DNA of 64,000 nt from Forficula auricularia. Its lineage: Eukaryota > Arthropoda > Insecta > Dermaptera > Forficulidae. Both the position numbers and the translations under genes were made by a program. Below are positions 24,836 through 59,747 of this stretch, piece after piece (position 1 is the first letter of the stretch; every line of letters begins with the position of its first letter). The stretch spans positions 1,054,001-1,118,000 of the forward strand of contig JALMQS010000890.1 of NCBI GenBank assembly GCA_024734495.1, given 5' to 3'. The notes below the pieces were generated by a model. That model was not told the origin of the DNA, did no database searches, and worked only from the letters and a program-made list of their open reading frames with translations.

Positions 24836-25236
24836 ATTTATCAGGCAACGTTGATTTAAATTTAAACCGGTATACAATCCCTACTGTCCAGCATATGTTG
24901 TAGCTTTGCCTTGATCCTTGCTAGAGAATTTAACATGGTATTAATACTATTATTATTTCAAAAACAAATTCTATTAACAAGTTTTGAGGATGAGAAAGCG
25001 GTCTGGCTAGGTCTGAACTCGACAAATTTAATCTTAATTGATCTTTTCTTAATTAAAGCAATTATTGATAGATGAAAAACTCAATAAAAAAGTTTGTTTA
25101 CATTTTTTTCTACTATCTTTTATTTTTAATTGGTTTTTTAATTTTAAAACCCACTAATGGGTTATAGCAAATATTAATATATAATATATTAAAATTAGGA
25201 ATTTTTTGTTTGTTTTTAATTAACAGGTGTCTAAAT

Positions 25237-25452
25237 TGAAGGAGACAATAAAAGAGTGTGTCTTCTGCTGGAATTATAAATTTTATTTATTTATAACGAG
25301 ACTATAGTTTCGAGGGCTTTGCCTCTTCATCAGTCTATTACAATGTATTCACAGGAATTAATTTATGAATGAAAGGTTAACATTTTTCACTCTTTTATTG
25401 TCTCCTTCAATATATAAAAATTCTGCTACTCTCGGCAAAAACTTTCAATTTA
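25237..25452. mobile_element. Hammerhead element nested in Helitron 3, perfect 12-bp TSD
   Basis: 216 bp, flanked by AGGTGTCTAAAT (25225-25236 and 25453-25464). The left arm starts GAAGGAGACAATAAAAGAG, and the inverse of that block is at 25388-25413, followed by the complete 3' end CTGCTACTCTCGGCAAAAAC-TTTCAATTTA. The left arm is truncated at that block. The minus-strand ribozyme sits between the arms. The perfect TSD shows insertion as one unit. Confidence 0.85.
25290..25342 (-). ncRNA. Hammerhead ribozyme, intact core, 8-nt palindromic helix III
   Basis: Minus strand: CUGAUGA (plus 25327-25333), extra A, stem II GAGG/CCUC with loop CAAAGC, GAA (25309-25311), ACUAUAGU (perfect self-complement, 25301-25308), C. 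The cleavage triplet is GUC. Inner helix I can be GA/UC with AUA/UAU beyond. An 8-nt palindrome cannot form a hairpin with a useful loop but pairs perfectly between two molecules. Confidence 0.75.
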
Positions 25453-26343
25453 AGGTGTCTAAATCATAACAAAACAGGTGTGTTTACAAATAAAGTGGTT
25501 GAAGTGGCTTTATTTTTATATAGCTTGTAAACACATCTTATTTATTTTTATGTTTTTATTTCAGATCCTATACGATTATTTTTTTTTATTGTTATTTTCC
25601 TATTTAATTTTTTATAATGTTTATCAATATGAACGAATTTAGGAAAATTGGTGTACGAGTAAACATATATACACATAATATATATGTGGACCATTAGAAA
25701 GCTAGAAATGCAAAAACTAGTTGCGGGGTGGGGTGGATGTGGAGGTGCAGGAGGTTGGGTGCAGTTGTGTGGGATCCGGGGGTGGGAGGCACGGTTGGGG
25801 TGGGGTGTAGTGGGGGTGTAGTGGTGGAGGCGAGGTGTATGGTTTCGGGAGGGGAGGGGGTCAGGTGTTACCATGCATCGCTCGGTGGCTTCAGGTACTC
25901 TTATCTTATATTATTAAATGAGAAATTCTTGTATATAAATTAATATATATATCCAATCGGGTTCTCCAAAACGGCTCTAACGATTTCACTAAAAATTGGT
26001 GTACTTATCAAGTCTTTGAAATTTGAAACTTAAGCTATCTAGAGGCTACAAGAAGTACCACAAGATTTTGGCTAAAATAGAAGCACCGAAACTTGATGTT
26101 TACGTACGTAAGAATGTAACGCAGGGGGCGTTACGCAACCATAAATCTCAGAGCTACGAAATTCGAAACTTAAGCTCGATATAGGCTAGAAGGAGTACAG
26201 CAAGCTTTTGATTGAAATCAGAACACCGGAAGTGGACATTTACATGAAAGATTTTTCATTTTTTTGATTTTCTCAAAAACCTTACTAACAATAATTAACA
26301 GGAATAGCAGAGAATTGACAAAAATTAAAAACAGAGTTTTTAT

Positions 26344-26397
26344 TGAATGGGCCAAACGTTTCGTCGATTAATTTCGACTTCCTCAGTGGCTCATTCT
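26344..26397 (-). ncRNA. Hammerhead ribozyme, intact core, long helix I
   Basis: Minus strand: helix I GAAUGAGCCA with UGGCCCAUUC (10 positions, one A/C mismatch), CUGAGGA (plus 26380-26386), extra A, stem II GUCG/CGAC with loop AAAUUAAU, GAA (26360-26362), ACGU palindrome, U. Every required element is present. Confidence 0.82.
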
Positions 26398-26697
26398 ATC
26401 ACTCTTTATCAAAAGACAATTCCACGAAACATCTTTAATCTTTTTTATTATTTTAACTACAATACATTGTTGGCTTAGGTCCTCAATTGCTCAACAATCT
26501 TGAACTTTTTTACACTTGAACAACATATTTTTTTTGTGAGAATTTTGATTTAAAAGTTTTTAATTGTTCAGGTGTAAAAAAGTTCAAGATTGTTGAGCAA
26601 TTGAGGCCTAAGCCAACAATGTATTGTAGTTAAAATAATAAAAAAGATTAAAGGATGTTTCGTCGCGTAGTGGAATTGTCTTTTGACAAAGAGTGAT

Positions 26698-26751
26698 AGA
26701 ATGAGCCACTGAGGAAGTCGAAATTAATCGACGAAACGTCTGGCCCATTCA
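26698..26751 (+). ncRNA. Hammerhead ribozyme, intact core, long helix I
   Basis: Plus-strand twin of the 26.37-kb site: helix I 26699-26708 with 26741-26750, CUGAGGA (26709-26715), extra A, GUCG/CGAC stem II, GAA (26733-26735), ACGU, C at 26740 (GUC triplet). Predicted cleavage after 26740. Confidence 0.84.
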
Positions 26752-27069
26752 ATAAAAACTCTGTTTTTAATTTTTGTCCAATTCCCTGCTATTCCTGTTA
26801 ATTAATGCTTTTTATGGATACGAGTGATTTACCTTACTAACAATTTTTTTCAAAAATTGGTGTACTTATCAAGTGTCATGAGTTATTAGTCGTGTATAGA
26901 TTTTAATCCGATTTAAATAAAGGAAGGTGTTGTAAATTAGGAGTGTTGTAAAATAAATATTTTAATCATATATCGTCTTCGGTAAGTCGCAGAGGTTTGA
27001 AATTTGAAACTTAAGCTATTTAGAGGCAAAAAGTTACTGAGCATCGGTCGGTGCTCCAGGTACTGATTA

Positions 27070-27444
27070 TTTAATTGTCGTGTGTCTGTTTGTGGTGGTG
27101 GATGAGGTGGGAGAATGAATCGCTTTCAAGGGTGCCCAGCAAGGAAGGGCTTGGGCCCCCACGTGATTCTCTCTCTCTGAGGAGGGTGGTTGTTCTCGTG
27201 GTGGTTCGGGGGGCGTCGTTCGTGCTCGGAAGGGAGGCGTCGGCGTCGCCACTTGCTCGGCGCCTGGCTCACCACTCAGTCGGCCCCTAGCTCTCTGCTC
27301 GGCAGTGGCGGATGACACCCTTATTACCCACGACACCCACTTCACGTACGCGATGCCCTGAATTATTCCCTAGCCCTTGCCTTTCTACTATATTCCCACC
27401 AGGGGCTTCCATTTTTCTTAAATTCCCTAAGCGCTGTTTTGACC
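27070..27444 (+). promoter_or_regulatory. CpG-rich promoter / 5' UTR of host gene
   Basis: This GC- and CpG-rich island stands out sharply from the surrounding AT-rich DNA. It contains a CT-repeat (27167-27180) and many CpGs (27205-27300), and runs straight into an ATG with good context. I see no clear TATA box, as usual for CpG-type promoters. The transcription start cannot be placed. A Helitron ends immediately upstream, at 27066. Two minus-strand and several plus-strand ORFs here have no recognisable product. Confidence 0.5.
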
Positions 27445-27654
27445 ATGTCCGAGTCTGACCAGGGGAGTGACACTCCGACGACGACACCTGCAGATTCCAT
27501 CAAGCCCACCGAGAATGCCGTTGTCACTCCCGCGTCGCCCTCGAGCGCGACAACTTCCGCGCCCAAACAGACCCAGGCCAAAATCGCAGCCAATGTCAAG
27601 AAAGTCGTCACCATCATCTCGCCACAGACTGAGGCTCACGGAGCTGATTTCAAA
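27445..27654 (+). CDS. First coding exon of an unidentified host gene
   Basis: The ATG at 27445 is in a favourable context (GACC ATG T). Seventy codons run to 27654, followed by GTCAGT, a plausible splice donor, giving a phase-0 intron. The peptide starts MSESDQGSDTPTTT, is low-complexity and rich in Ser, Thr, Pro and Ala to about residue 45, then becomes basic and ordered (KIAANVKKVVTIISP, residues 46-60) and ends HGADFK. Codon use is strongly G/C-ending, unlike any transposon ORF nearby. No signal peptide is evident. I do not recognise the protein. Reading continues to a stop at 27682 if unspliced, which is unlikely. No second exon was found downstream, implying an intron longer than 36 kb or exons too short to see. 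Confidence 0.6.
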
Positions 27655-27739
27655 GTCAGTCACTTTTTAATCATTATTCATTAATAACTACCCTTACAAA
27701 CTAAATAAATAAATAATGAATAAACATATATTTCTTTTA

Positions 27740-27872
27740 TAAAAACAATATTCAAACGTTTATTGAAATACCAAACGTTTCGGTAGAAATTTTCCCTTTA
27801 TCAATGGAATTTGAAAAAAATATAGTTGGCCTAAAAAAGGAAACGATAAGCAACTTTAAATAAATAAATATT
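27740..27872 (-). mobile_element. Decayed hammerhead element
   Basis: Same family as 13.7 kb. On the minus strand, AAAUUCCA pairs with UGGUAUUU around a mutated core (UUGAUAA), and GAA-ACGU-U is intact. G8 is lost, so it should be inactive. The rest of the element is eroded. Confidence 0.55.
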
Positions 27873-27889
27873 TTGAATTTAGACCATAA

Positions 27890-28475
27890 TACAGAGTAGG
27901 GTATAAAGATCTACCACATTTTGAAGAGGTATAAAAAATAAAAAAAATCAACTAGAAAAAACTGAATATATTTTTGAAAAGAACATAAAATACATTTTTT
28001 TTAAATGTGTTATAAACATTATATCAGAGGAAAAAGGGGGAGGAGTCAAAAGTGAAAATTCTAGCCCTTTCGAACAATCCAAACCAAAATTTTAAACATA
28101 TTCTGTGGACCCCAAAAGGATAGAAATGCAAAAACTAACCACCCAAAATGGGAGGGAGGGTCAAAAGTGAAAATTTAGCCCTTTCAACCAAACTATGTAT
28201 ACAAAATTTGGTTAGTTTTTGCATTTCTAACCTTCTGGAGGTCCACAGAATATGTATATAAAATTTGGTTGAGTTTGGTCTAAAAAGCTAGAATTTTCAT
28301 TTTTGACCCCCCCCCTTTTTTTTTGTCTGATAATGTTTAAAACACATTAAAAAAAAATTATTTTATGTTCTTTTCAAAAATATATTCAGTGTTTTTCTAG
28401 TTAATTTTTTTCATTTTTTATACCTCTTCAAAATGTGGTAGATCTTTATGGCCCACTCTGTACAAATTGACTTGG
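27890..28475. mobile_element. Foldback MITE with ACAGAGT-GGGCCATAAAG ends
   Basis: Left end CAGAGTAGGGTATAAAGATC (27892) and right end, inverted, CAGAGTGGGCCATAAAGATC. Arms of over 100 bp continue ACCACATTTTGAAGAGG. TA lies outside both ends. Inner blocks (GGTCAAAAGTGAAAATTCTAG, split here; CCACCCAAAATGGGAGGG) recur inverted. Tc1/mariner-type target and ends are likely. Relatives: 50341-51811 and, in part, 36640-36870. Confidence 0.75.
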
Positions 28476-28484
28476 TGATAAAAT

Positions 28485-29350: not shown

Positions 29351-29384
29351 GAGTCCTAACAATAAATTATTTTTCAATGTTTTA

Positions 29385-31446: not shown

Positions 31447-31448
31447 TA

Positions 31449-31966: not shown

Positions 31967-31968
31967 TA

Positions 31969-32999: not shown

Positions 33000-33014
33000 C
33001 TATGTAGTAGAGTA

Positions 33015-36887: not shown

Positions 36888-37032
36888 ATAAATAATTTTA
36901 GATAGAGTACTATGATGTTTTATTATTCAATATTTGTTCTTAAATGAGGCTAATTAAAACCATGAGAACAGTTAGAATGTTCTCGTAAGGAGAAAAGACT
37001 TAAAAAAACAAAATCTTTTATGTCCTTATCAA

Positions 37033-37100
37033 TCTTTTTATTTTAAAACTGGGAGACAGTTTCGGCCGACACTCTCAAGCCATCATCAGTCTAAAAAGTA
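37033..37100 (-). ncRNA. Hammerhead ribozyme of the left PLE copy
   Basis: Minus-strand equivalent of the 43.04-kb site: CUGAUGA (plus 37083-37089), extra U, GGCU/GGCC stem II, GAA (37061-37063), helix III ACUG/CAGU with its own loop, U. Identical to its partner in all core positions. Confidence 0.82.
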
Positions 37101-37800
37101 CAAATACATAAACCTTACAATTGCAAATACAAATCAAGAAACAAATATATATAAAGATCAGTTCACTCACCCTCAGTTTTCAATAGTACATTGGTAATAT
37201 TATTTTTATTTTTACATTTTCTTTGCAATTCAGCAAAATTCCAACATCTGTTGTTATAGATGAGAGTAACAAATGCAATTCTATAAAATTGAAAAAATAT
37301 ATAAAGACATTTTTTCTTTTTCTTTGTCATATTATTTAAAATTAGGTTCATTATTTGAAATGCTCTCTCACCTTGATTACCAATCACACATTTGTTTTTA
37401 TTATAGCACAAAATTCTTTTAAAATACAATTGTAACATTCAATTATTTACATTCACAATATTCTCCCGTGTCAAATCTTAGGACAAATTATAATTTTTCA
37501 CTCTTTGATCAATTCAATTACATTCTATATAAAACTTTTCTATTTTTAATATAAAAATAAAAATAGTGTATGACGTTATACCAGCTGCCAACACAATTAA
37601 ATTAAAACCCCAGTCTTCAAAAACAAAAATTCATACAAAACAAGATATACAACATTAACAATTTTCAACAAAGGTACTATAATTATACAGTTACCATCAA
37701 ACAGCAGAGAGCAAAACCTCAGGAAAAGTCAACACACTACACCGCTCCCAAAAAATCACACTCAGGAAACAACCAACTTATTTTTATGAACATATACAAT

Positions 37801-38934
37801 TCAGCTTATTAGTTTGCTTATTAGGTCGCTATAGTATCGGACATTGTTCTCAGTGTCTACTTTAAAGTTGACTACTTTGTCTCTATTCCTCAGAATGTGT
37901 AGGGATTCTTTCATCTTACGTATGAAATCATCCCTCTCCCTGCACAATATAGAGACATCATTAAAATCAAACTCATGATTTGAGTCAATTGCGTGAATGG
38001 CCAATGCAGATATTAATTTGCCCTTTACTACCGATTTGTCATGTTCAATGACCCTTGTCCTTAGCATTCTCTTTGTTTCTCCTATGTATGTTCTATCACA
38101 GTCTTTGCATTTTATCTCATATACGACATTGTTTTCATTATAAACATCCTTGACAGTTGGAACCCGATACAAAGATAACAGGGGTTTTACAGGGCGTTTA
38201 GCCAGCATTACACCTGCCACCCTAAACATTCTCACTATCATATCGGTTAATATTGGTACGTATGTTAACGACCCCATGAATCTCAATGGATTTTCTTGTA
38301 TTTTTCTTTTTTTCCACTCTTTAACATAGTATCTTCTTCTTAGATTTTCCACCAACTCTCTCGGATAACCATTCTGTACACATTTAATGGTGAAATCATT
38401 CAAATTTTTTTGAAGAAAAGAAGAATGAGATATCCGCCATATTCTATTTATTTCACCATATATGATAGATATTTTTTGTGCTAAAGGATGATATGAGTTA
38501 TACTTAATCATCCTATTGGATTTGGATGGTTTTGTATATAAATCCGTAATAATTTCATGCCCTGATTTAATTAGTAAGGTATCCAAGAAAGGTAGCTGAC
38601 TATTATTTTCGACTTCTGCATTAAACTTTATATTGCTATTATAGCCGTTGAGTAATTCCAACGTTACAGGGATAAGTTCACGTTTCATAGCTGAGACCGA
38701 ATCATCCACATATATATAGTAAAAGGGCAAATTTAGTGGGGCTATGATCCTATCAAACACATCATCCATCACCACATTTGCGATCAAGGGCGACAAAATA
38801 GCTCCCATTGGGAGTCCTTTAACCTGTGTGTAGATTATGCTATCATAAGTAAAATAATTCTCTCTCAAACACATGGCCAAACCTTCCATAAACATATCCT
38901 TATCCAAATGTGTACATTCTTTATGTCTTCCCAC
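37801..38934 (-). CDS. PLE polyprotein, C-terminal part (RT palm to GIY-YIG), left copy
   Basis: 377 codons in one frame. It begins just after a lesion, with THLDKDMFMEGLAM at residues 8-21. It keeps the RT G-box VKGLPMGAILSP (39-50), the catalytic YVDD (near 75), LPFLDTLLIK (near 113), the KEWKKRKIQENPL linker, and the full GIY-YIG endonuclease (VYEIKCKDCDRTYIGETKR near 272-290, then RVIEH). Here the linker frame is continuous, with a run of 7 A residues. Together with the N-terminal piece at 39766-40002 it represents one PLE protein broken by lesions between about 38935 and 39765. The internal segment is recognisable but frameshifted. Confidence 0.85.
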   Translation of the reverse strand: MGRHKECTHLDKDMFMEGLAMCLRENYFTYDSIIYTQVKGLPMGAILSPLIANVVMDDVFDRIIAPLNLPFYYIYVDDSVSAMKRELIPVTLELLNGYNSNIKFNAEVENNSQLPFLDTLLIKSGHEIITDLYTKPSKSNRMIKYNSYHPLAQKISIIYGEINRIWRISHSSFLQKNLNDFTIKCVQNGYPRELVENLRRRYYVKEWKKRKIQENPLRFMGSLTYVPILTDMIVRMFRVAGVMLAKRPVKPLLSLYRVPTVKDVYNENNVVYEIKCKDCDRTYIGETKRMLRTRVIEHDKSVVKGKLISALAIHAIDSNHEFDFNDVSILCRERDDFIRKMKESLHILRNRDKVVNFKVDTENNVRYYSDLISKLIS

Positions 38935-39765
38935 CTGCAGTCCAAGATATTTAACGCCAAATTAACTTCAATCGATCCAAACATATCTTCCACGTCAAAT
39001 GAGACAACACTTCATTTCCTGTTAATTTTGTCATTTCTATCTTTGAGATTAGATCAAAAGAATTTATTATTCTTTGCTGTTCGTTGTAATAGCCTTCAAA
39101 ATTCTAGAAAAAAACTTGCTTAAGCCATTGATAGAGAACCCACAGATGACACAATTATCCTCAAAAGGCATTTCAGATTTGTGGGCTTTTACCAAGGCAT
39201 ACATTTTAGATGGTGTTGGTGTACTAGATTTCATATTGTTGTAAGCTTTCTTATCAATAATCTTCTAAAGACAAAAGTTGTCCCAGATATTTATTAACTT
39301 TTTTCTGTAACGACGCCAAGATGTCAAACCTGCAACTTGAAACTTATCATTGTTAGTTAACAACTGTTTCACTTTACAATGGTACTCATGTCTATTCATT
39401 ACAACTGTTATATTTGACGGTCTGATAGTAAGATCTGTATTTCTTCTATATTATCATGTATGTATTTTTGCGTAACTTATATCCTAGCACACCGCTTCTA
39501 TGGTTGGAGAAAAATTATGTAAATAGTCGTTCAATAAATTGTTCATCCTAGATCGCTTGGTCTCTTTCCATTTCGGCCGTATGTTCTCAATTGTTCTCAT
39601 TCACAAACCAAATCAAAAATCTATTGTTAGGAGACTACTCACTAGAAACATATGAAAATTTATTTCCATAACTTAAAATCTTTGTACTTTTGCGCACATT
39701 AACACAACATTAACCACATCTGATATATTTCAACATCGTCATACTCTCGTTTTGTCTAACATCAT
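38935..39765 (-). pseudogene. Frameshifted middle of the left PLE ORF
   Basis: The nucleotide sequence follows the right copy (40325-41215) but carries several small indels and substitutions that break the frame, covering the region before the RT palm. Examples are at 39265, where the right copy has TCTTTAGAG, and around 39410-39480. The left copy therefore cannot make a full protein. Confidence 0.8.
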
Positions 39766-40002
39766 CTAAATTAAACCTTTTAAAATCTTTATCTTGTTCT
39801 TAACTCGCTGTATATCTCTGCTATACTGTCTTTCATAATAAATCTCAAAAAACGACTGTAAAGAATTATATAAATGCGGGTTCGTATTACTTTCAATTCT
39901 CGACCACAATCGCCCTATCGACACATATATGTATTCTTCCTCCAAATGTGCCTCACCTATCTCTGAACTCAACATGGTTATCTTCAATCTATCCAATTGC
40001 AT
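39766..40002 (-). pseudogene. PLE polyprotein, N-terminal part, left copy
   Basis: Seventy-five codons identical to the N-terminus of the right copy (MQLDRLKITMLSSEIG..), then a frame change at KILK. 5' end of the broken left ORF. Confidence 0.82.
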
Positions 40003-40086
40003 ACTGAAAACTTGTGAATATTTAATGTTTGTTATGTTTGTTATGCGGTCCCAATAACAAACATTAAATATTCACAAGTTTTCAGT
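40003..40086. repeat. Palindrome centre of the PLE dimer
   Basis: Arms ACTTGTGAATATTTAATG and its inverse flank a spacer of about 18 bases (TTTGTTATGCGGTCCC) that has no inverted partner. There is no separate promoter or long 5' UTR here: the two copies are joined at or close to their 5' truncation point, just upstream of the ATGs. Confidence 0.8.
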
Positions 40087-41841
40087 ATGCAATTGGATAG
40101 ATTGAAGATAACCATGTTGAGTTCAGAGATAGGTGAGGCACATTTGGAGGAAGAATACATATATGTGTCGATAGGGCGATTGTGGTCGAGAATTGAAAGT
40201 AATACGAACCCACATTTATATAATTCTTTACAGTCGTTTTTTGAGATTTATTATGAAAGACAGTATAGCAGAGATATACAGCGAGTTAAGAACAAGATAA
40301 AGATTTTAAAAAGGTTTAATTTAGATGATGTTAGACAAAACGAGAGTAATGACGATGTTGAGAATATTATATCAGATGTGGTTAATGTCTCGTCGTTGGT
40401 GTTGCCTCAGAAAGTGACAAAGATTTTAAGTTATGGAAATAAATTTTCATATGTTTCTAGTGAAGTCAAGTCTCCCAACAATAGATTTTTGAATTTGGTT
40501 TGTGAAATGGAGAAACAATTGAGAAATATACAACCGGAAATGGAAAGAAACCAAACAAGATCTAGGATGAACAATTTATTGAACAACTATTTACATAATT
40601 TTTCTCCAACCATAGAAGACCGGCGGCTGTCTAGGGATATAAGTTACGCAAAAAAATACATACATGATAATATAGAAGAAATACAAGTCTTACTATCAGA
40701 CAAGTCAAATATAACAGTTGTAATGAATAGACATGAGTACCATTGTAAAGTGAAACAGTTGTTAACTAACAATGATAAGTTTCAAGTTGCAGGTTTGACA
40801 TCTTTGGCGTCGTTACAGAAAAAAGTTAATAAATATCTGGGACAACTTTTGTCTTTAGAGATTATTGATAAGAAAGCTTACAACAATATGAAATCTAGTA
40901 CACCAACACCATCTAAAATGTATGCCTTGGTAAAAGCCCACAAATCTGAAATGCCTTTGAGGATAATTGTGTCATCTGTGGGTTCTCCTATCAATGGCTT
41001 AAGCAAGTTTTTTTCTAGAATTTTGAAGGCCATTACAACGAACAGCAATAGAATAATAAATTCTTTTGATCTAATCTCAAAGATAGAAATGACAAAATTA
41101 ACAGGAAATGAAGTGTTGGTCTCATTTGACGTGGAAGATATGTTTGGATCGATTGAAGTTAATTTGGCGTTAAATATCTTGGACAGCAGGTGGGAAGACA
41201 TAAAAATGTACACACATTTGGATAAGGATATGTTTATGGAAGGTTTGGCCATGTGTTTGAGAGAGAATTATTTTACTTATGATAGCATAATCTACACACA
41301 GGTTAAAGGACTCCCAATGGGAGCTATTTTGTCGCCCTTGATCGCAAATGTGGTGATGGATGATGTGTTTGATAGGATCATAGCCCCACTAAATTTGCCC
41401 TTTTACTATATATATGTGGATGATTCGGTCTCAGCTATGAAACGTGAACTTATCCCTGTAACGTTGGAATTACTCAACGGCTATAATAGCAATATAAAGT
41501 TTAATGCAGAAGTCGAAAATAATAGTCAGCTACCTTTCTTGGATACCTTACTAATTAAATCAGGGCATGAAATTATTACGGATTTATATACAAAACCATC
41601 CAAATCCAATAGGATGATTAAGTATAACTCATATCATCCTTTAGCACAAAAAATATCTATCATATATGGTGAAATAAATAGAATATGGCGGATATCTCAT
41701 TCTTCTTTTCTTCAAAAAAATTTGAATGATTTCACCATTAAATGTGTACAGAATGGTTATCCGAGAGAGTTGGTGGAAAATCTAAGAAGAAGATACTATG
41801 TTAAAGAGTGGAAAAAAGAAAAATACAAGAAAATCCATTGA
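40087..41841 (+). CDS. PLE reverse transcriptase part, right copy (frameshifted before the endonuclease)
   Basis: 584 codons. PLE reverse transcriptases use a nicked-target 3' end to copy element RNA. Visible motifs: KAHKSEMPLRIIVSS (near 283), SFDVEDMFGSI (346), YTQVKGLPMGAILSPLIANV (402-421), the catalytic YVDD (442), LPFLDTLLIK (481), TDLYTKPSK (495). The order fits Penelope-type RT. The N-terminal 270 residues are helix-rich and charged. The frame ends early at EWKKEKYKKIH because a run of A (41812-41817) has six bases where the left copy has seven. The rest of the protein continues in another frame at 41808-42323. Start: first ATG, 84 bp from the mirrored ATG. Confidence 0.88.
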   Translation: MQLDRLKITMLSSEIGEAHLEEEYIYVSIGRLWSRIESNTNPHLYNSLQSFFEIYYERQYSRDIQRVKNKIKILKRFNLDDVRQNESNDDVENIISDVVNVSSLVLPQKVTKILSYGNKFSYVSSEVKSPNNRFLNLVCEMEKQLRNIQPEMERNQTRSRMNNLLNNYLHNFSPTIEDRRLSRDISYAKKYIHDNIEEIQVLLSDKSNITVVMNRHEYHCKVKQLLTNNDKFQVAGLTSLASLQKKVNKYLGQLLSLEIIDKKAYNNMKSSTPTPSKMYALVKAHKSEMPLRIIVSSVGSPINGLSKFFSRILKAITTNSNRIINSFDLISKIEMTKLTGNEVLVSFDVEDMFGSIEVNLALNILDSRWEDIKMYTHLDKDMFMEGLAMCLRENYFTYDSIIYTQVKGLPMGAILSPLIANVVMDDVFDRIIAPLNLPFYYIYVDDSVSAMKRELIPVTLELLNGYNSNIKFNAEVENNSQLPFLDTLLIKSGHEIITDLYTKPSKSNRMIKYNSYHPLAQKISIIYGEINRIWRISHSSFLQKNLNDFTIKCVQNGYPRELVENLRRRYYVKEWKKEKYKKIH

Positions 41842-42323
41842 GATTCATGGGGTCGTTAACATACGTACCAATATTAACCGATATGATAGTGAGAATGTTT
41901 AGGGTGGCAGGTGTAATGCTGGCTAAACGCCCTGTAAAACCCCTGTTATCTTTGTATCGGGTTCCAACTGTCAAGGATGTTTATAATGAAAACAATGTCG
42001 TATATGAGATAAAATGCAAAGACTGTGATAGAACATACATAGGAGAAACAAAGAGAATGCTAAGGACAAGGGTCATTGAACATGACAAATCGGTAGTAAA
42101 GGGCAAATTAATATCTGCATTGGCCATTCACGCAATTGACTCAAATCATGAGTTTGATTTTAATGATGTCTCTATATTGTGCAGGGAGAGGGATGATTTC
42201 ATACGTAAGATGAAAGAATCCCTACACATTCTGAGGAATAGAGACAAAGTAGTCAACTTTAAAGTAGACACTGAGAACAATGTCCGATACTATAGCGACC
42301 TAATAAGCAAACTAATAAGCTGA
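41808..42323 (+). CDS. PLE GIY-YIG endonuclease part, right copy
   Basis: 171 codons in the frame following the single-base deletion. A GIY-YIG nuclease nicks target DNA for PLE retrotransposition. VYEIKCKDCDRTYIGETKR (about residues 66-84) is the GIY and YIG pair, with the two Cys typical of Penelope endonucleases. TRVIEH (89-94) supplies the conserved Arg and His, and a later His-containing segment (ALAIHAIDSNHEFDF) and the Glu of MKESLHI complete the usual pattern. Catalytic residues look intact. Total from the RT start to this stop is about 745 residue positions, normal for Penelope. Confidence 0.87.
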   Translation: MEKRKIQENPLRFMGSLTYVPILTDMIVRMFRVAGVMLAKRPVKPLLSLYRVPTVKDVYNENNVVYEIKCKDCDRTYIGETKRMLRTRVIEHDKSVVKGKLISALAIHAIDSNHEFDFNDVSILCRERDDFIRKMKESLHILRNRDKVVNFKVDTENNVRYYSDLISKLIS

Positions 42324-43023
42324 ATTGTATATGTTCATAAAAATAAGTTGGTTGTTTCCTGAGTGTGATTTTTTGGGAGCGGTGTAGTGTGTTGACTTTT
42401 CCTGAGGTTTTGCTCTCTGCTGTTTGATGGTAACTGTATAATTATAGTACCTTTGTTGAAAATTGTTAATGTTGTATATCTTGTTTTGTATGAATTTTTG
42501 TTTTTGAAGACTGGGGTTTTAATTTAATTGTGTTGGCAGCTGGTATAACGTCATACACTATTTTTATTTTTATATTAAAAATAGAAAAGTTTTATATAGA
42601 ATGAAATTGAATTGATCAAAGAGTGAAAAATTATAATTTGTCCTAAGATTTGACACGGGAGAATATTGTGAATGTAAATAATTGAATGTTACAATTGTAT
42701 TTTAAAAGAATTTTGTGCTATAATAAAAACAAATGTGTGATTGGTAATCAAGGTGAGAGAGCATTTCAAATAATGAACCTAATTTTAAATAATATGACAA
42801 AGAAAAAGAAAAAATGTCTTTATATATTTTTTCAATTTTATAGAATTGCATTTGTTACTCTCATCTATAACAACAGATGTTGGAATTTTGCTGAATTGCA
42901 AAGAAAATGTAAAAATAAAAATAATATTACCAATGTACTATTGAAAACTGAGGGTGAGTGAACTGATCTTTATATATATTTGTTTCTTGATTTGTATTTG
43001 CAATTGTAAGGTTTATGTATTTG

Positions 43024-43095
43024 TACTTTTTAGACTGATGATGGCTTGAGAGTGTCGGCCGAAACTGTCTCCCAGTTTTAAAATAAAAAGATTGA
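43024..43095 (+). ncRNA. Hammerhead ribozyme of the right PLE copy
   Basis: CUGAUGA at 43035-43041, extra U, stem II GGCU/GGCC with loop UGAGAGUGUC, GAA (43061-43063), then a real helix III hairpin ACUG-UCUCC-CAGU, U at 43077 as cleavage nucleotide. Helix I: UAGA with UUUA next to the core and CUUUUUA with UAAAAAG beyond an internal loop. All hammerhead requirements are met. It lies about 710 bp after the ORF. Confidence 0.86.
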
Positions 43096-43197
43096 TAAGG
43101 ACATAAAAGATTTTGTTTTTTTAAGTCTTTTCTCCTTACGAGAACATTCTAACTGTTCTCATGGTTTTGATTAGCCTCATTTAAGAACAAATATTGA

Positions 43198-43275
43198 ATA
43201 AATAATTTTATTAAATATTAAATAGAAGTGAGGGGCCAGGTTGTATGGTAAAGTCAAATGGATGGACACATCAGA
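43198..43275. repeat. CTTTACCATACA repeat, right part
   Basis: Continuation of 36230-36887 after the PLE: the TSD copy, AAATATTAAATAGAAG, GGTTGTATGGTAAAGTC and GGATGGACACATC, as in the outer end of 33015-33820. Confidence 0.6.
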
Positions 43276-50340: not shown

Positions 50341-50737
50341 TACTGGGTGGGCCATAAAGATCTACTACATTTTGAAGAGGAATAAAATATTAAAAAAATT
50401 TAACTAGAAAAAAAAAAACTGAATACATTTTTGAAAAGAACATAATTTTTTTTTAAATATATTTTAAACATTATATCAGGCAAAAAAAAAGGGGGGGGGG
50501 GGCGGTCAAAAATAGAAATTCTAGCCCTTGGACCAAATTCAACCAAATTTTGTATACATATTCTGTGGACCCCCAGAAGGCTAGAAATGCAAAAACTAAC
50601 CACCCAAAATGGGAGAGGGAGGGTCACAAATGAGAATTCTAGCCCTTTCTACCAAACTCAACCAAATTTTGTATAGTTAATAGAGTAAAGGGTGTGTAGT
50701 TTCACAGTGAATGAAATAAAACTCAAAGAGGTTTATA

Positions 50738-50783
50738 CAAACTCAATATATTTCGGATTATTAGTTCATCATCAGGAGTTTAC
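50738..50783 (-). ncRNA. Hammerhead ribozyme, core intact, stem II weakened
   Basis: Minus strand: helix I AAACUC/GAGUUU (6 bp), CUGAUGA (plus 50769-50775), extra U, GAAC...AUCC (two mismatches), GAA (50752-50754), AUAUAU, U. Helix I and core are excellent. Stem II has eroded from a likely GGAU/AUCC. Confidence 0.65.
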
Positions 50784-51410
50784 AAGTTAATATTAACTAG
50801 GTCCTCCAAACATCAATACAATCTAGCTACAATACATTAATAAACATCAATACAAATTAATTACAACAATAACAAATAATAAACAAGTAAAAAAAAAAAG
50901 AAGAAAAAAAAAAAAATAGAAATGTATGCTCATTAACAAATAACATGACCATAGATTTCCATCAAAAGACAAAAAGTAATTTAAAAATTCCGCGCAAAAA
51001 CCCGATATCAGGAGCAAGCGACGCATTAGCCATCCCGGCATTTGCCATAAGCTGTTAAGGAAACCTGGTCAAAACCTTAACAAGGATGGTATGACCTCTC
51101 TCTACCTCACCTAATCTCTGCTTGTGATAACTAAATAAAATTTTGCACAACTCTAGGACATTAGGACTTGACAAAATTTATAATTGATTTAATCATAGCG
51201 GGCAGAGGACTATAATCCCAAGTAGTAACAGACAGACTGTTCCACAAATCAATGCCAGATCCTACAAATGAATGTAAACCGATATTTTTCAAGAATCTTG
51301 GCTTACGAATCTTTTTTCTATGATCAGCTCTACCTAAATAACTTGGTTCCTGAAATCTATTCGTTATTTCCTCCCAAATCCTAAAACCCTTATAGGCTTT
51401 GAAAATTTAT
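50784..51410 (-). pseudogene. LINE 3' end: ORF2 C-terminus and 3' UTR
   Basis: The minus-strand frame 51400-51161 is open for 79 codons: KAYKGFRIWEEITNRFQEP, GRADHRKKIRKPRFLKNIGL, then HSFVGSGIDLWNSLS and a stop at 51161. The LWNSL motif and the preceding basic stretch are the usual end of Jockey/CR1-like LINE ORF2. The 3' UTR continues to about 50785 and matches 3895-4200 and 63420-63655, but lacks their terminal TTTA repeat. Confidence 0.7.
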
Positions 51411-51829
51411 TAAATTATTTCATTCACTGTGAAACTACACACCCTTTACTCTATTAACTAACATCATGTTTCACCTAAAACCTACACCACTTTCCATAAG
51501 TAAAATTTTGTATACATAGTTACGTCGAAAGAGCTAGAATTTTCATTTTTGACCCTCCCCACCATTTTGGGTGGTTAGTTTTTGCATTTCTAGCCTTCTC
51601 CACAGAATATGTATACAAAATTTGTTTGAGTTTTGTCGAAAGGACTAGAATTTTCAATTTTGCCCCTCCCCCCCCTTTGTTTTTGCCTTATATAATGTTT
51701 AAAATATATTAAAAAAATCATTTTATGTTCTTTTCAAAAATGCATTCAGTTTTTTTTCTAGTTTTTTTATACCTCTTCAAAATGTGGTAGATCTTTATGT
51801 CCCACCCTGTATTTCAGAAGGTTTTTTTT

Positions 51830-52196: not shown

Positions 52197-52935
52197 TAAC
52201 CGACTTCAAAAAAGGAGGAGGTTCTCTATTCGACTGAATTTTTTTTTTTTTTTTTTTTTTTTGTGCCTATGTTACCTCATATCTCCGCCAATTGTCAACC
52301 GATTTTGAAATTTTTTTTGCATTGGGTCCAGTCTAGCTTCCGATTGGTCCCATTTTTTTCGATTTTTTTTCATAGGTATTAGACCTTTTTTATTAGGTTT
52401 GTTTAGACCTAACCTCTTTGTTTATGAACCGATTTCGATGGTTCTTTTTTTATCCGAAAGGGGGTGTCTTAGGGATGGTGTCATATTAATTTGGTCAAGT
52501 TCTGATGATATGATCACTATTAATAACATCACTAAAAAGAGAAAAATAAAAATAATTTTTAAGAAAAAAATAAAAACCGACTTCAAAAAATTAAATGCAA
52601 CAAATAAAATACACTAAAAGGTATAAAATAATTATTATCTTATTTAGTTACAACTAAACGACGAAATATTAACATGAAATTACTTTTTGAAGTCGGTACC
52701 AAACAAACTATTCCTATAAGCGAGCGTACCCGCCAAACGTACTAAGTAAGATCCGTCGAGTGCGATTCATAAAAGGTATATGTTTGGCACCGACTTCAAA
52801 AAGTAATTTCGTGTTAATATTTCGTCGTTTAGTTGTAACTAAATAAGATAATAATTATTTTATACCTTTTAGTGTATTTTATTTGTTGCATTTAATTTTT
52901 TGAAGTCGGTTTTTATTTTTTTCTTAAAAATTATT
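52197..52935. mobile_element. Foldback element with CCGACTTCAAAAAA arms, copy 2
   Basis: Matches 19350-20045: AACCGACTTCAAAAAAGGAG start, T-run, the AAACGACGAAATATTAACATG block and its inverse, central GACTTCAAAAAG motifs. The right arm ends early at 52935 after CTTAAAAATTATT. The ORF at 52399-52617 is a shadow of the same sequence. Confidence 0.7.
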
Positions 52936-53580: not shown

Positions 53581-53582
53581 GT

Positions 53583-53936: not shown

Positions 53937-54580
53937 GCTAGACAAAAATTAAAAAAAAATTTTTAACAGTAACGCTAATAATGGATTCTAGTCGTGTTCT
54001 TTATGCTGATTATCATGCAATTTCCTAATTTTTTACCACCGGTCAGAATTTTGAGATATTATTGGTCGACGACGAAAAAGGCCATTTTGTCCTATTTTCG
54101 AGTCCCATTAGATATTAAACAACACTATTTGAAATCAAAATATTTTGTTGACGTAATAGAAAACGGCTTCCTATTTGATTTTCAAATTACCACTTGTTTG
54201 TAGCTCAATTAGAACTAGAGTTATAACTAAAAAAACTAAGACCAAATGGTTTTAACTACGTTTATTATTCTTATAATCACGTAGTTTTAGTTTTATAGTT
54301 GTAACTAGAGTTATAATTGAGGTGAAAACAAGTGGTAATTTAAAAATCAAAGAGAAAGCTGTTTTCTATTACGTCAACAAAATATTTTGATTTCAAATCT
54401 TGATGTTTAATATCTAATGGAACTCGAAAATATGTCAAATTGCCGTTTTGACCGATAAAATCTCAAAACTCTGACCTGTTGTAAAAAATCGGGAAATTGC
54501 ATGATAATCAGCATATAGAACTCGTCTGGAATCAATTTTTAGGTTTACGGTTAAAAAATTTTCTCGACTAGTTTAATAGT
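53937..54580. mobile_element. Foldback element with arms of about 300 bp
   Basis: Left arm 53937-54230, right arm 54290-54580, inverted, centre near 54262. Ends CTAGACAAAAATT and, inverted, CTAGTCGAGAAAATT. Blocks such as GCTGATTATCATGCAATTTCC and AAAATATTTTGTTGACGTAATAGAAAA (both split across arms) recur inverted. No ORF of interest: 53994-54203 is chance. Confidence 0.7.
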
Positions 54581-54739: not shown

Positions 54740-55018
54740 TTATGTATTTATATTTGTAGGAGACAATAAAAGAGTGTCTGCTGGAATTATAAATTTTTAA
54801 TTTATTTATAACGAGACTAGTTTCGAGAGCTTTGCCCTCTTTATCAGTCTATTACAATTTATTCACGGGAATTAATGTATGAATGGTAGCAATAGGGCAA
54901 ACTAGTCTCGTTATAAATAAATTAAAAATTTATAATTCCAGCACAAGACACTCTTTTATTGGCTCCTTCAATTTATAAAAGTTGTGCTACTCTTGGCAAA
55001 AAACTTTCAATGCAAGTA
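54740..55018. mobile_element. Hammerhead element of the GGAGACAATAAAAG family
   Basis: Left arm begins TAGGAGACAATAAAAGAGTG. The right arm ends with the complete 3' terminus GTGCTACTCTTGGCAAAAAA-CTTTCAAT. Inverted repeats of about 60 bp (GAGACTAGTTTCG.. with CTAGTCTC) surround a G8-mutant ribozyme. The TSD is unclear (TATTTATAT on both sides). Confidence 0.68.
54808..54856 (-). ncRNA. Decayed hammerhead, palindromic ACUAGU helix III
   Basis: Minus strand: CUGAUAA (G8 to A), extra A, GAG...CUC stem II, GAA, ACUAGU, C. Helix III is two bases shorter than in the 25.3-kb relative yet still a perfect palindrome. Confidence 0.6.
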
Positions 55019-56097: not shown

Positions 56098-56106
56098 AAG
56101 AAAATA

Positions 56107-56404
56107 GGATTATTGGATAAAAATATTTGGTAGGTTTCACATTAAGATATAAAAAATAAAACGAATTTATTTTTGGAGAATCTTTAATTCGATATGTATA
56201 TTTCAGTATATATGTTTCAGTTACTTTCTGTTTGCTCCTAAAGATGGGTTAGTCACCCGAAATATATATATATCGAGATTAAAGATTCTCCAAAAATAAA
56301 TTCGTTTTATTTTTTATATCTTAATGTGAAACCTACCAAGTATTTTTGTCCAATAATTTTAAAAAATGTTTCACCAAGTACCAACACCAAATTCCTTAAA
56401 AACT
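56107..56404. mobile_element. Hammerhead inverted dimer, 9-bp TSD
   Basis: Flanked by AAGAAAATA (56098-56106, 56405-56413). Arms share AAGATATAAAAAATAAAACG and more. The right arm carries the full 3' box (minus reading AAGGAATTTGGTGTTGGTAC..GGTGAAACAT) next to the TSD. The left arm starts inside, at GGATTATTGG. Same family as 57808-58136. Confidence 0.8.
56229..56280 (+). ncRNA. Decayed hammerhead, long AU helix III
   Basis: CUC, then CUAAAGA (G5 to A), U, GGGUUAGUCACCC stem-loop, GAA, AUAUAUAUAUAU palindrome, C, GAG pairing with CUC. Only G5 is lost. Confidence 0.6.
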
Positions 56405-56425
56405 AAGAAAATATGAGTTTTTATT

Positions 56426-56600: not shown

Positions 56601-56689
56601 AATACTTAATATCGCTTTTTGTAAGTATATAGGTATGTAATTACATATACGAGAATCTATTTTCAAGTATAAAATTGACGAAAAGTAAA

Positions 56690-56831
56690 ATTAGAAGATC
56701 ACTATGTGCTAAAAAAATAAAGTTCTTATTTTTACATTATTAATTATAACAAATATCAATAGAATACTAATAATTTATTTGTTTTTTCTTCAAATGTGGC
56801 CCGTGTAAGCTAAAAGGTTGGACACCCCTGC
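56690..56831. mobile_element. hAT-like repeat, inverted end
   Basis: Ends in the inverse of CAGGGGTGTCCAACC at 56831, preceded by AATGTGGCCCGTGTAAGC. Probably the right terminus belonging to 55160 or 55725. The 8 bases outside do not match those at either left end. Confidence 0.55.
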
Positions 56832-57465
56832 CTTATGGTATACCTATATTTTTTGTTTCGTTAGATCCAATCTTAAACGGTTATTACGTAGAATTTTCAA
56901 ATAAAATCAATTTTAATTTCTATTGTATGGTATATATAGCATGAATGAAGCTGGCCTTTGATCGATTAATTGAAAATAGATTTCAATTATGATAACCGCG
57001 CCATATTTACATTTTCACGGATCCATCTACAACAAAAGTGACTGGTTAATATTTGAGTATCCATTAGAATAATACCGATAGACATTCAATATTTATTTTT
57101 GCATAATTGCTCACCGACCCGATTCAATAGCAAAATCATTAGCATTTTTTAACTTTATTATTGGAGGGTCGGAGATATTAACGCCACCCCCTGCCTGCTC
57201 TCTTCCAGTTTATACCTGTAAACATTTTAATAGACGTTGCAAAAATCAGCTTGCAATTTGAAACATTTATTGACTCCGTGATGCAATTTTATGATAAAAT
57301 TAAAATGAGAATCGACCTTGACTAGAGACCTTGATTGTTCCTTTAGTTCTATGAAGATCCACTAATTCATTGATCAAAATATTCAAAAAAAAAAAATACA
57401 ATTACTACATATTTTAAGCTGCTGTTTTGTAACAAAATTTAAAATATTCAAAAATAAACTGATGT
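56832..57465. other. No recognisable feature
   Basis: AT-rich spacer. No gene supported. Confidence 0.35.
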
Positions 57466-57929
57466 GCCCATCTATATAAATTTACCATATACCTGCCCCT
57501 TCTCTTATATTTAATATTTTGATCCTATAAAGAAATAGTGACCCTTTTATAGTAAATTCCATTTTTCTTTTTTTTTCTTTTATAATTTTAATTTTTTAAA
57601 AACCTTCTCCCCTTAATTTTGGGTTCTGTATCAACCCAAATCTAATCAGTTTTTAATCTCAATTCAAAAAACTACATGTGAAATTTTGTTTTGATATTCA
57701 CACTACTTTTTGAGCTAGAGCATAAGACAAAATTTAGAAATTCATTAACATACGTACTAATGTAGGTACTAACAAACATTTTACAAAATTTGGTCATTAA
57801 CTTACGTTTTTAAGGAATTTGGTGTTGGTACTTGGTGAAATGTTTTTTAAAATTATTGGATAAAAAATACTTGGTAGGTTTCAAATTAAGATATAAAAAA
57901 TAAAACGAATTTATTTTGAGAATCTTTAA

Positions 57930-57982
57930 TCTCGATATAAAGTATATATTTCGGGTGACTAACCCATCTTCACGGAGCAACA
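57930..57982 (-). ncRNA. Decayed hammerhead
   Basis: Minus strand: an inserted G breaks the first box (CGUGAAGA). The rest (GGGUUAGUCACCC, GAA, AU-rich helix III with loop, AUC, GAG) is intact. Confidence 0.6.
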
Positions 57983-58008
57983 GAAAGTAACTCAACTGTT
58001 ACTTTCTG

Positions 58009-58062
58009 TTGCTCCTGAAGGTGGGTTAGCCACCCGAAATATATACTTTATATCGAGATTAA
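58009..58062 (+). ncRNA. Decayed hammerhead with hairpin helix III
   Basis: CUC, CUGAAGG (A9 to G), U, GGG...CCC stem, GAA, AUAUA-UACUU-UAUAU hairpin, C, GAG. Helix III here is a true hairpin, unlike the palindromic forms. A9 is lost. Confidence 0.6.
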
Positions 58063-58376
58063 AGACTCTCCAAAATAAATTCGTTTTATTTTTATATCTT
58101 AATGTGAAACCTACCAAGTATTTTTTATCACAATAACATTAACTTAAGTACTAATATACTAACAAACATTTTGATAAAATAATTATTATCTAGTAAAATA
58201 CACTTTTTTCGATTTTCACTTTATAAGGCATTTCTTAGACCAAAACGCCGTTTCGCTGAGTTTTTTTTATCAAAATTGAGGCGTTTTTTAGATATTTTGA
58301 AAAAACGAAGCAAAAAAATAAAACATTTTTCAAGCCCGATTACCATACTTGACCATATTCTATATAGTAAAGTAAA

Positions 58377-58720
58377 AATTGAAAATATTTATAAAATTCG
58401 ATACGCTAAAGTAAATTTTTGTGATTTAGTAAATTTTTTTGCTGAAAATGGTTTGGTCTAGAATCTGTAAAGAAAAAATTTCCGTTTACATTCACTGTTA
58501 TAGTTTAATATTAGAAATGTTTGTACTCATGTAACCTCGGACTCCCCCTTTACAATTGTGTAATACATCTAATATTTGAAAATTCCACAGAACCCCGCGG
58601 CCACAGGCGTAAGTGCCCACAATTGGTCTATTATGCGCCCCGAGTAATGAAAAAAAATGCTCAGCTTATTTTCCCCCAAACATGTGTTCCAAATTTCAGC
58701 TCATTAACTCGTTCAAAGAC
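58377..58720. other. No recognisable feature
   Basis: Mixed-composition sequence. The ORF at 58521-58733 has no known motif. Nothing supported. Confidence 0.3.
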
Positions 58721-58831
58721 ACTATTTAACTAACAGGAATTATTTAACGGGTTATAGTGGTGTTTTACAAAGTAGAAATAAAATTAAAAAATTAAAAAAT
58801 CTTTTAAATTATTTTGGAGATTTTTTTATTT

Positions 58832-58876
58832 ATCTCTATACATATTTCGGGCTATGAACCCTTCATCAGGAGGTTT
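58832..58876 (-). ncRNA. Hammerhead ribozyme, intact core
   Basis: Minus strand: CUC helix I, CUGAUGA (plus 58863-58869), extra A, GGGU/GCCC stem II with loop UCAUA, GAA (58846-58848), AUAUGUAU (self-complementary allowing U-G), A, GAG. Complete. Confidence 0.78.
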
Positions 58877-59542
58877 AACAGAAAACTGAATATAAAATTT
58901 TTTACATTGTATTGATATTATTATAGTACATAGCGAGTGGAGGGGGTGAGCCAATGGGCGTTGAAAGAATTGAGTGGTTGAATTTAAAGGTATGTGGAAG
59001 GGAGAAAATGGGTATTGAACAAATTGTCTGGTCAAAGTCAGGTACATTTCAAATAGGATGTCTTTGTTCGAAATTTATTTGTATAGGATTCTGGGAATAC
59101 CTATTAAAGGAATTTGTGTAAGTGTTTTAGACTATATAAATTTAGACAAAGAAGAGGATATAGAAAGTTAATTCGAAGATGAGAAAAGAGGAACAAATGT
59201 TTAGTAAAGAATGAATGAATTTCGGTTAAATTTGGTTTATTAATTTTAATTATTAAATTAATTAAATTAAATTAAATTTATATAGTCTAAAACCCTTACA
59301 CAAATTCCTTTAATAGGTATTCCCAGAATCCTATACAAATAAATTTCGAACAAAGACATCCTATTTGAAATGTACCTGACTTTGACCAGACAATTTGTTC
59401 AATACCCATTTTCTCCCTTCCACATACCTTTAAATTCAACCACTCAATTCTTTCAACGCCCATTGGCTCACCCCCTCCACTCGCCCTGTACTATAATAAT
59501 ATCAATACAATGTAAAAAAATTTTATATTCAGTTTTCTGTTA

Positions 59543-59592
59543 AACCTCCTGATGAAGGGTTCATACATAGCCCGAAATATGTATAGAGATAA
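59543..59592 (+). ncRNA. Hammerhead ribozyme, intact core
   Basis: CUC, CUGAUGA (59549-59555), extra A, GGGU/GCCC stem II with a 9-nt loop, GAA (59574-59576), AUAUGUAU, A, GAG. The loop is 4 nt longer than in its partner at 58.85 kb, otherwise the same. Confidence 0.78.
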
Positions 59593-59747
59593 ATAAAAAA
59601 ATCTCCAAAATAATTTAAAAGATTTTTTAATTTTTTTAATTTTATTTCCACTTTGTGAAACACCACTATAACCCGTTAAATAATTCCTCTGTTTAATATG
59701 TTTCACTATAAACCAACACCGCTTTCCCTAAACTTTACTATTTAACT

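What the first reader, a model, noticed from the sequence alone, without database searches (positions are those of the whole stretch)
25225..59747. Hammerhead elements insert as head-to-head inverted dimers with one complete and one truncated arm
Seen: elements at 26293-26830, 50676-51502, 56107-56404, 57808-58136, 58732-59736 and 25237-25452 have direct flanking repeats of 9-14 bp (ACCTTACTAACAAT, AAATTTTGTATA, AAGAAAATA, CATTAACTTA[C/A]GT, ACTATTTAACT, AGGTGTCTAAAT). In each, 5' ends meet at the centre, ribozymes point outward, and only one arm reaches the family 3' end next to the TSD. The short ribozyme-less element at 6922-7032 has the same one-arm-complete ends and a 12-bp TSD. The other arm stops at varied points. 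Inference: first-strand synthesis from the 3' end, then snap-back self-priming at the cDNA end gives this exact shape.
Basis: partly seen in the sequence, partly recalled or inferred. Interest (0 to 1): 0.93.

Follow-up and report, generated by a model that had tools for sequence, protein, structure and literature searches.

The report
Head-to-head Penelope-like retrotransposon dimers
The palindromic, ribozyme-bearing inserts are Penelope-like retrotransposons (an already described shape), and their fixed ends suggest that both sides of the cut chromosome start copying the element's RNA, rather than one copy folding back on itself.

Summary
Observation largely right; the inference fails on its own examples. 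The window (unnamed 1.06-Gb eukaryote) is rich in Penelope-like elements (PLEs): 13 hammerhead motifs against 0-2 in shuffles, and a 6.3-kb head-to-head dimer encoding RT with a weak GIY-YIG match. The seven listed inserts have 9-14-bp TSDs and one longer outer end. But the other arm does not stop at varied points: it ends 26-52 nt short in 21 dimers kept (17-26 in autonomous copies), in the E1 family at one site. This is the known PLE 'tail'. What varies is the inner (5') end. Snap-back needs the tailed arm to be the longer template; in E2, E6 and E7 it is the shorter, as in 14 of 32 unequal dimers. The 21 E1-family centres compared differ, so no master dimer is copied. Best reading: both cut target strands prime cDNA, one at site A (with tail), one at site B, and the cDNA 3' ends join head to head. 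The shape and a self-priming idea are in print (Arkhipova 2013); two start sites and two-strand extension were shown in vitro (Frangieh 2024). My searches found no paper joining these into two-ended priming.

The parts
26279..26844 (.). E1: TSD ACCTTACTAACAAT (26279-26292, 26831-26844); left arm 26293-26523 (-, no tail); right arm 26524-26803 (+); tail 26804-26830; motifs 26358-26386 (-) and 26709-26737 (+). Tail on the longer arm
50664..51514 (.). E2: TSD AAATTTTGTATA; left arm from 50676 (-) with motif 50750-50775, no tail, up to 51414 at most; short right arm 51415-51458 plus tail 51459-51502. Tail on the SHORT arm
56098..56413 (.). E3: TSD AAGAAAATA; insert 56107-56404; tail 56358-56404 on the longer (right) arm
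57795..58146 (.). E4: TSD CATTAACTTA; insert 57805-58136; tail 57805-57852 on the left arm; arms near equal (6-nt hinge)
58721..59747 (.). E5: TSD ACTATTTAACT; insert 58732-59736; tail 59689-59736 on the right arm; motifs 58844-58869 (-) and 59549-59578 (+)
25225..25464 (.). E6: TSD AGGTGTCTAAAT; long left arm from 25237 (-) with motif 25307-25333, no tail; short right arm 25388-25409 plus tail 25410-25452. Tail on the SHORT arm
6910..7044 (.). E7: TSD GAATATAATGTG; insert 6922-7032; left arm matches the E6 left arm over 56 nt; tail 6991-7032 on the right, shorter arm; no ribozyme
36888..43210 (.). Autonomous PLE as head-to-head dimer: TSD ATAAATAATTTTA; left arm (-) with tail 36901-36926, right arm (+) without tail, centre about 40039-40052; motifs 37059-37089 (-) and 43035-43065 (+)
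40018..41841 (+). Reverse-transcriptase reading frame of the right arm (607 aa stop to stop; RVT_1 E=1e-9); its N-terminus is cut off at the dimer centre
41805..42323 (+). C-terminal reading frame (172 aa) with a GIY-YIG match below the curated cut-off
4664..5249 (.). Further candidate dimer (tentative): TSD TTATATTTA; insert 4673-5240; outward motif 5018-5047 (+)
12045..12277 (.). Further candidate dimer with outward motif near 12153 (-); boundaries uncertain
54747..54979 (.). Further palindrome with an E6-like motif on the minus strand near 54804; no TSD settled

Best explanation
These are autonomous and short non-coding Penelope-like elements inserted by two-ended target-primed reverse transcription. 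The element endonuclease cuts both target strands about 10-15 bp apart (inferred from TSDs). Each exposed 3' end primes cDNA on element RNA, one at site A (giving the tail), the other at site B some 17-52 nt upstream, depending on the family. Usually one cDNA runs to the RNA 5' end and the other stops earlier or at the same place. The two cDNA 3' ends then meet and are joined, sometimes with a few bases of overlap; each strand serves as template for the other, and gap repair yields the TSD. Shown here: two fixed outer ends, different inner junctions, head-to-head polarity, TSDs, tail on either the longer or the shorter arm. Inferred: cutting of both strands, priming by both, joining of cDNA ends.
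For: Tail 26-52 nt, median 41, in 21 dimers kept. E1 family: the tail-less arm begins 0-8 nt before the AACAGG motif in 16 of 17 inserts bounded automatically, 11 in L027 (L039 is an allele of L025; the other 13 of 30 loci were not bounded there, and L037, L041, L047 and L049 were later bounded at or within about 10 nt of the same site). Autonomous family: hits end at query 350 with, 325-333 without tail, of 42 rows in a capped list. Tail on the shorter arm in 14 of 32 unequal dimers. The 21 E1-family centres compared differ (the most alike pair scores 16 of 40). In 17 of 19 unequal E1-family dimers the longer arm ends at reference -23 to +16. All 9 nearby pairs among 43 hits of a query without tail are head to head. 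Overlap of 3 nt or more at 7 of 21 junctions, against 12.6% (reshuffled ends) or 8.2% (random positions). In L028 the arms carry different subfamily variants, which a copied arm could not. Frangieh 2024 (PMC11167929; parts 1-2 of 4 and passages read): PLE protein cleaves and extends both target strands and starts at two adjacent sites that match the tail.
Against: By my reading the arms agree in subfamily in 12 of 13 informative E1-family dimers, and L050 shares a private variant in both arms, which snap-back would also give. Near-perfect palindromes at internal points (L031; the 3.1-kb arms of the autonomous copy) fit snap-back, or two polymerases on one broken RNA. Two of 29 E1-family loci are monomers with TSDs and four are unresolved; L027 has three arms. 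L041 and L049 start the right arm at the same base (92) though their left parts differ. L051 has tails on both arms. The E1-family query held the tail and 189 nt of the tailed arm, so its 13:6 split is biased. L026 and L034 count as 'tail on shorter' by only 21-23 nt. For 150748 the reference match crossed the tailed-arm boundary, but the reference is itself a palindrome; I assigned it by the motif. The overlap counts allow mismatches, the control does not.
Confidence: 0.68

Rival explanations
1. Snap-back self-priming (first reader; related to Arkhipova 2013, who proposed self-priming on an antisense template): the finished cDNA folds back and copies itself, and the second arm stops short.
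For: Head-to-head shape; near-perfect palindromes with 2-17-nt hinges; near-identical arms; tail on the longer arm in 18 of 32 unequal dimers; L038 has a 43-nt fold-back piece.
Against: Tail on the shorter arm in 14 of 32 unequal dimers, among them E2, E6 and E7; fixed tail-less end; L028 arms of different subfamily. Later central deletion of the palindrome could shorten a tailed arm, but would have to break at the axis nearly every time (17 of 19 longer arms end within 40 nt of one 5' site).
Confidence: 0.17
2. Two polymerases of one dimeric complex copy ONE RNA, started a few tens of nt (perhaps one footprint) apart, each primed from a different target strand. A narrower form of the best explanation.
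For: No double-tailed dimer among 23 E1-family dimers; arms agree in subfamily in 12 of 13 informative dimers (my reading); arms sometimes end together at internal points (L031; the autonomous copy), as two run-offs from one broken RNA would.
Against: L028 (different subfamilies); L051 (two tails); selection for the tailed arm.
Confidence: 0.3
3. A master head-to-head dimer is transcribed and copied whole.
For: Many copies share the shape and both outer ends; L041 and L049 share the start of the right arm.
Against: The 21 E1-family centres compared differ; arm lengths run from about 12 nt (L035) to about 370 nt.
Confidence: 0.03
4. Foldback or MITE-type DNA transposons with inverted termini.
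For: Inverted ends and TSDs; some palindromes in the window (749-2025, 7971-9523, 19343-20397) show no exact outward core and may be of this kind.
Against: One-sided tail, ribozyme motif, autonomous copy with RT, 5' ends varying from locus to locus.
Confidence: 0.02

Closest known systems
Penelope-like elements with inverted pLTRs (Arkhipova et al. 2013, PMC3846280; parts 1-4 of 5 read)
   Same: RT plus GIY-YIG polyprotein, TSD, head-to-head inverted repeats with palindromes at the junction, tail of 31 bp optionally on one of the inverted repeats; self-priming already proposed there
   Different: Here many dimers are bare head-to-head pairs without direct pLTRs and are short and non-coding; evidence that self-priming is not the general route
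PAc Penelope from Anolis in vitro (Frangieh et al. 2024, PMC11167929; parts 1-2 of 4 and passages read)
   Same: Two adjacent internal RT start sites that define the tail; cleavage and extension of both target strands; AT-rich targets; an AC-rich initiation region, as the ACC[AT]ACACC in tails of E2-E5 is AC-rich
   Different: In what I read, genomic head-to-head dimers are not discussed or explained by two-ended priming
L1 twin priming (recalled, no call)
   Same: Both target strands prime on element RNA, giving an inversion at insertion
   Different: In L1 the second primer lands inside the RNA and the segments do not overlap; here both start near the RNA 3' end and the arms overlap
Metazoan retrozymes (PMC7229834; passages read)
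   Same: Short non-coding repeats with type I hammerheads, suggested to depend on PLEs
   Different: Retrozymes are described as tandem repeats; these are head to head with a tail

Membership tests
Penelope-like element (autonomous copy 36901-43197) | Reverse-transcriptase domain | tested here: met
   RVT_1 E=1e-9, 38.9 bits against cut-off 29.6
Penelope-like element (autonomous copy 36901-43197) | GIY-YIG endonuclease domain | tested here: inconclusive
   E=7.7e-4, 20.2 bits against cut-off 22.6; 17.9 bits in relative P0001
Penelope-like element (autonomous copy 36901-43197) | Minimal hammerhead motif in the terminal repeat | tested here: met
   Core plus stem II in both arms; no Rfam hammerhead hit; cleavage not tested
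Penelope-like element (autonomous copy 36901-43197) | TSD and tail on one inverted repeat | tested here: met
   13-bp TSD; tail on the left arm only
Penelope-like element (autonomous copy 36901-43197) | Direct (tandem) pLTR arrangement in the family | tested here: met
   One copy, C22: two same-strand repeats 3,430 bp apart, the first preceded by the end of a coding unit (L053)
Penelope-like element (autonomous copy 36901-43197) | RT phylogeny within the PLE clade | not tested
   No tree built
Non-autonomous PLE (E1-E6) | Same ends: motif, fixed tail-less end, tail, TSD | tested here: met
   a fixed tail-less end across loci was tested in the E1 family and roughly in the E3 family from hit ends, not in E2, E5, E6
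Non-autonomous PLE (E1-E6) | Mobilised in trans by PLE protein | not testable with these tools
   needs an assay
Retrozyme | Head-to-tail multimers | tested here: not met
   9 of 9 E1-family pairs head to head; one tandem trio of the E6 family near 116055-116792 of the 264-kb stretch is the exception seen

The most novel reading that the evidence does not exclude
Penelope-like elements integrate by coupled two-ended TPRT: the two target ends each capture a polymerase on the same RNA, a few tens of nt apart (sites A and B), and the two cDNAs anneal head to head at their 3' ends, so that no separate second-strand primer is needed. The genomic tail asymmetry would be the fossil of that coupling.
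Probability: 0.38. Interest if true: 0.78.

Novelty: new member of a known kind. Interest (0 to 1): 0.52.

Why it matters
How Penelope-like elements, a separate retroelement class related to telomerase, complete integration is unresolved; self-priming has been the printed proposal for their head-to-head copies. A genome with many young copies gives a simple test from sequence alone (is the tailed arm always the longer?), and the answer here points to two-ended priming, which an existing in vitro system could check.

Tried and rejected
Rfam for hammerheads: nothing at gathering cut-off; at E up to 10, nine microRNA-model hits plus weak drz-agam-2-2 ribozyme and tmRNA hits, no hammerhead. The genome search with RF00008: no match, and no control genome rang either. 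Master-dimer copying: rejected, centres differ. 'Tail always on the shorter arm' (strict form of two polymerases on one RNA): rejected, 18 of 32 go the other way. 'Arms always from independent RNAs': not favoured, only L028 is clearly mixed. Two TSD calls of the automatic scan dropped as wrong or unclear on reading: 107327-107689 and 57938-58837. The (TA)n-flanked family at 21823, 103161, 113871 and 159063 of the 264-kb stretch has no decidable TSD or tail and was left out. Of the 58 motifs scanned many had no convincing dimer partner or TSD (best candidates with pair scores near 20) and were not used.

Dropped before the tail-length list: the entries just named, 23550 (offset 5), 15405 (14), 27407 (60), 204673 (54), 115943 (40), 215998 (31), N12045 (76, boundary unclear), the flank dimers in L025 (63) and L032 (40 against 5), L051 (two tails), L052 (17) and L054 (23). 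With them the range would be 5-76. Dropped before the unselected longer-or-shorter tally: hinge under 15 nt or no usable reference: 26116, 27407, 57983, 91894, 141014, E4, E5, the autonomous copy (tailed arm about 9 nt shorter, by eye), 108421, 159564, 107327, 15405, 204673, 211969, 23550, 115943, 215998, and the flank dimers of L025 and L032. E1 (L021) is in both sets and counted once. Left out of the 22 E1-family reaches: L027 (three arms).
Full report
WHAT IS THERE. The window lies in a 1.06-Gb assembly of an unnamed eukaryote. It holds 13 minimal hammerhead-type motifs (CTGANGA, stem II of at least 3 pairs, GAAA[C/T]) where 20 dinucleotide shuffles gave 0-2; with 200 kb of neighbouring sequence there are 58 against 0-2 in ten shuffles. 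Rfam's hammerhead families do not reach threshold; a review says that PLE hammerheads usually lack helix III (PMC6155905, passages).

The key to their identity is not in the finding: 36901-43197 is one dimer of two head-to-head arms of about 3.1 kb, with a 13-bp TSD, a reverse transcriptase (RVT_1, E=1e-9) and a weak GIY-YIG match. A database relative of 831 aa is 100% identical over the shared part and starts 72 residues further upstream. Both arms are thus cut at almost the same internal point. The coding frame in the window copy is interrupted. The arms differ mainly between about 38913 and 39768.

THE OUTER ENDS. In E1-E7 the unpaired outer extension is 27, 44, 47, 48, 48, 43 and 42 nt. 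In 21 dimers kept from many families in the 264 kb and in flanks of fetched loci it is 26-52 nt, median 41 (the rows dropped, with their values, are under Tried and rejected). E2-E5 and two related copies share a GTTTCAC..ACC[AT]ACACC motif there, with up to 3 mismatches allowed. In the E1 family, of 30 loci 17 were bounded automatically, with the AACAGG motif required within 60 nt of the TSD; 16 start 0-8 nt before the motif, L027 11 (two of the 17 are alleles). L037, L041, L047 and L049, bounded, start at or within about 10 nt of the same site. In the autonomous family the hits end at query 350 (with tail) or 325-333 (without); L052 and L054 give tails of 17 and 23 nt. In the E3 family the hits without the tail mostly end at query 98-111 of 145 (by my reading). 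So there are two fixed 3' ends, not one fixed and one ragged.

THE INNER ENDS. Of the 30 E1-family loci (29 distinct, L025 and L039 being the same insert), 23 are head-to-head dimers with a tail-less left arm (L035's is only about 12 nt), 2 are monomers with TSDs (L029, L043), 4 unresolved (L022, L036, L038, L048). Nineteen of the 23 have exact TSDs of 10-15 bp; L035 has 9; L027 and L033 imperfect ones by eye; L044 none found. Left-right cross-pairing of the 19 gave 2-8 bp in 339 of 342 pairs and 11, 15 and 23 in three. The reach of both arms could be set for 22 (not L027): the tailed arm is longer by 15 nt or more in 13, shorter in 6 (L023, L026, L034, L037, L041, L049), within 15 nt in 3 (the short left arm of L035). 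The query required a tailed arm of 189 nt, which favours the first class. In 17 of the 19 unequal ones the longer arm ends at reference -23 to +16, presumably the RNA 5' end, about 220 nt upstream of the ribozyme: the centre does not lie at the ribozyme.

In the unselected set (264 kb plus flanks of fetched loci) twelve unequal dimers could be assigned: tail on the shorter arm in 8 (E2, E6, E7, and 92551, 150748, 194293 of the 264-kb stretch, and one each in the flanks of L028 and L049), on the longer in 4 (E1, E3, 12077, 112057) (five of the eight, namely E7, 92551, 150748, 194293 and the L028 flank, were looked at again by eye). For 150748 the only reference match crossed the tailed-arm boundary, but that reference is itself a palindrome; the motif lies in the tail-less arm, and the tailed arm matches its relatives for only some tens of nt. 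The 264-kb coordinates minus 200,000 give window coordinates where positive. Two autonomous-family copies, L052 and L054, have the tail on the longer arm (found with a query that held the tail). Altogether 14 of 32 distinct loci (12 + 19 + 2, E1 once) have the tail on the shorter arm.

WHY THIS TELLS AGAINST SNAP-BACK. In snap-back the second arm is copied from the first, so it can be shorter at either end but cannot contain 3' sequence that its template lacks, nor can the template be the shorter arm at the centre. A tailed short arm facing a tail-less long arm needs a second, independent start on RNA. Self-priming on an antisense transcript (Arkhipova 2013) fails in the same way. Central deletion of a former perfect palindrome is the remaining escape, but would have to break at the axis in nearly every case.

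TWO RNAS OR ONE. By my reading, subfamily variants agree between arms in 12 of 13 informative E1-family dimers; L028 is mixed; L050 shares a private variant; L046, L031 and L024 have no arm difference over 253, 181 and 67 columns. L037 differs at ten columns, all by variants in its tail-less arm, which could mean another source or later mutation. This leans to one RNA, or RNAs of one source, without proving it. Junctions show an overlap of 3 nt or more in 7 of 21, gaps of up to 17 nt in others; 12.6% was expected for reshuffled ends, but the two counts are made differently. L041 and L049 start the right arm at the same base, though their left parts differ.

ORIENTATION GENOME-WIDE. A query from the ribozyme to near the tail-less end, without the tail, gave 43 hits (capped list) with 9 nearby pairs, all (-,+), that is head to head. 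In the 264 kb, nine neighbouring motif pairs of like sequence within 1 kb are also (-,+) (by my reading of which are alike). Exceptions seen: one tandem autonomous copy (C22, 3,430 bp apart; its first repeat follows a coding end, L053), one trio of E6-family motifs in tandem near 116055-116792 of the 264-kb stretch, one double-tailed dimer (L051), one three-armed insert (L027).

AGAINST WHAT IS KNOWN. The shape, with a TSD and a tail on one of the inverted repeats, is described as typical of Penelope in PMC3846280, which also calls head-to-head the most frequently observed inverted arrangement and proposes self-priming. PMC11167929 shows two adjacent RT start sites equal to the tail, and cleavage and extension of both target strands. 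In the parts read it does not connect this to head-to-head dimers. My nine answered paper searches showed no paper that does; their listings are limited to an open-licence library, and two papers I looked for (PMC8557442, Craig 2021; PMC4209133, Cervera and De la Pena 2014) are not held, so priority is not established.

VERDICT. The bolder reading, coupled two-ended priming from two sites on element RNA, is best supported here but rests on sequence alone.

Noticed in passing
window 749-2025, 7971-9523, 19343-20397, 52551-52935, 53955-54562: Further large palindromes (about 80-90% arm identity) without an exact outward hammerhead core; possibly foldback DNA elements.
   Followed up: no
window 38913-39768: The left arm of the autonomous dimer is nearly identical to the right arm outside this stretch but shows clustered small differences within it, which looks like assembly error in a palindrome.
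   Followed up: partly
264-kb stretch 21823, 103161, 113871, 159063 (L003, L011, L012, L016): A motif-bearing palindromic family that appears to sit beside TA repeats.
   Followed up: no
264-kb stretch 116055-116792 (L012): Three E6-family motifs on the same strand at 354-356-bp spacing, a head-to-tail array.
   Followed up: no
L026, L040, L048: E1-family arms interrupted by further inserts, the one in L026 palindromic: nested insertion.
   Followed up: partly
L033, L035, L029, L044: E1-family arms reaching furthest 5' begin with a run of T, possibly the RNA 5' end or untemplated bases on the cDNA.
   Followed up: partly
window 11189-11803: A 178-bp tandem repeat, 3.5 copies.
   Followed up: no
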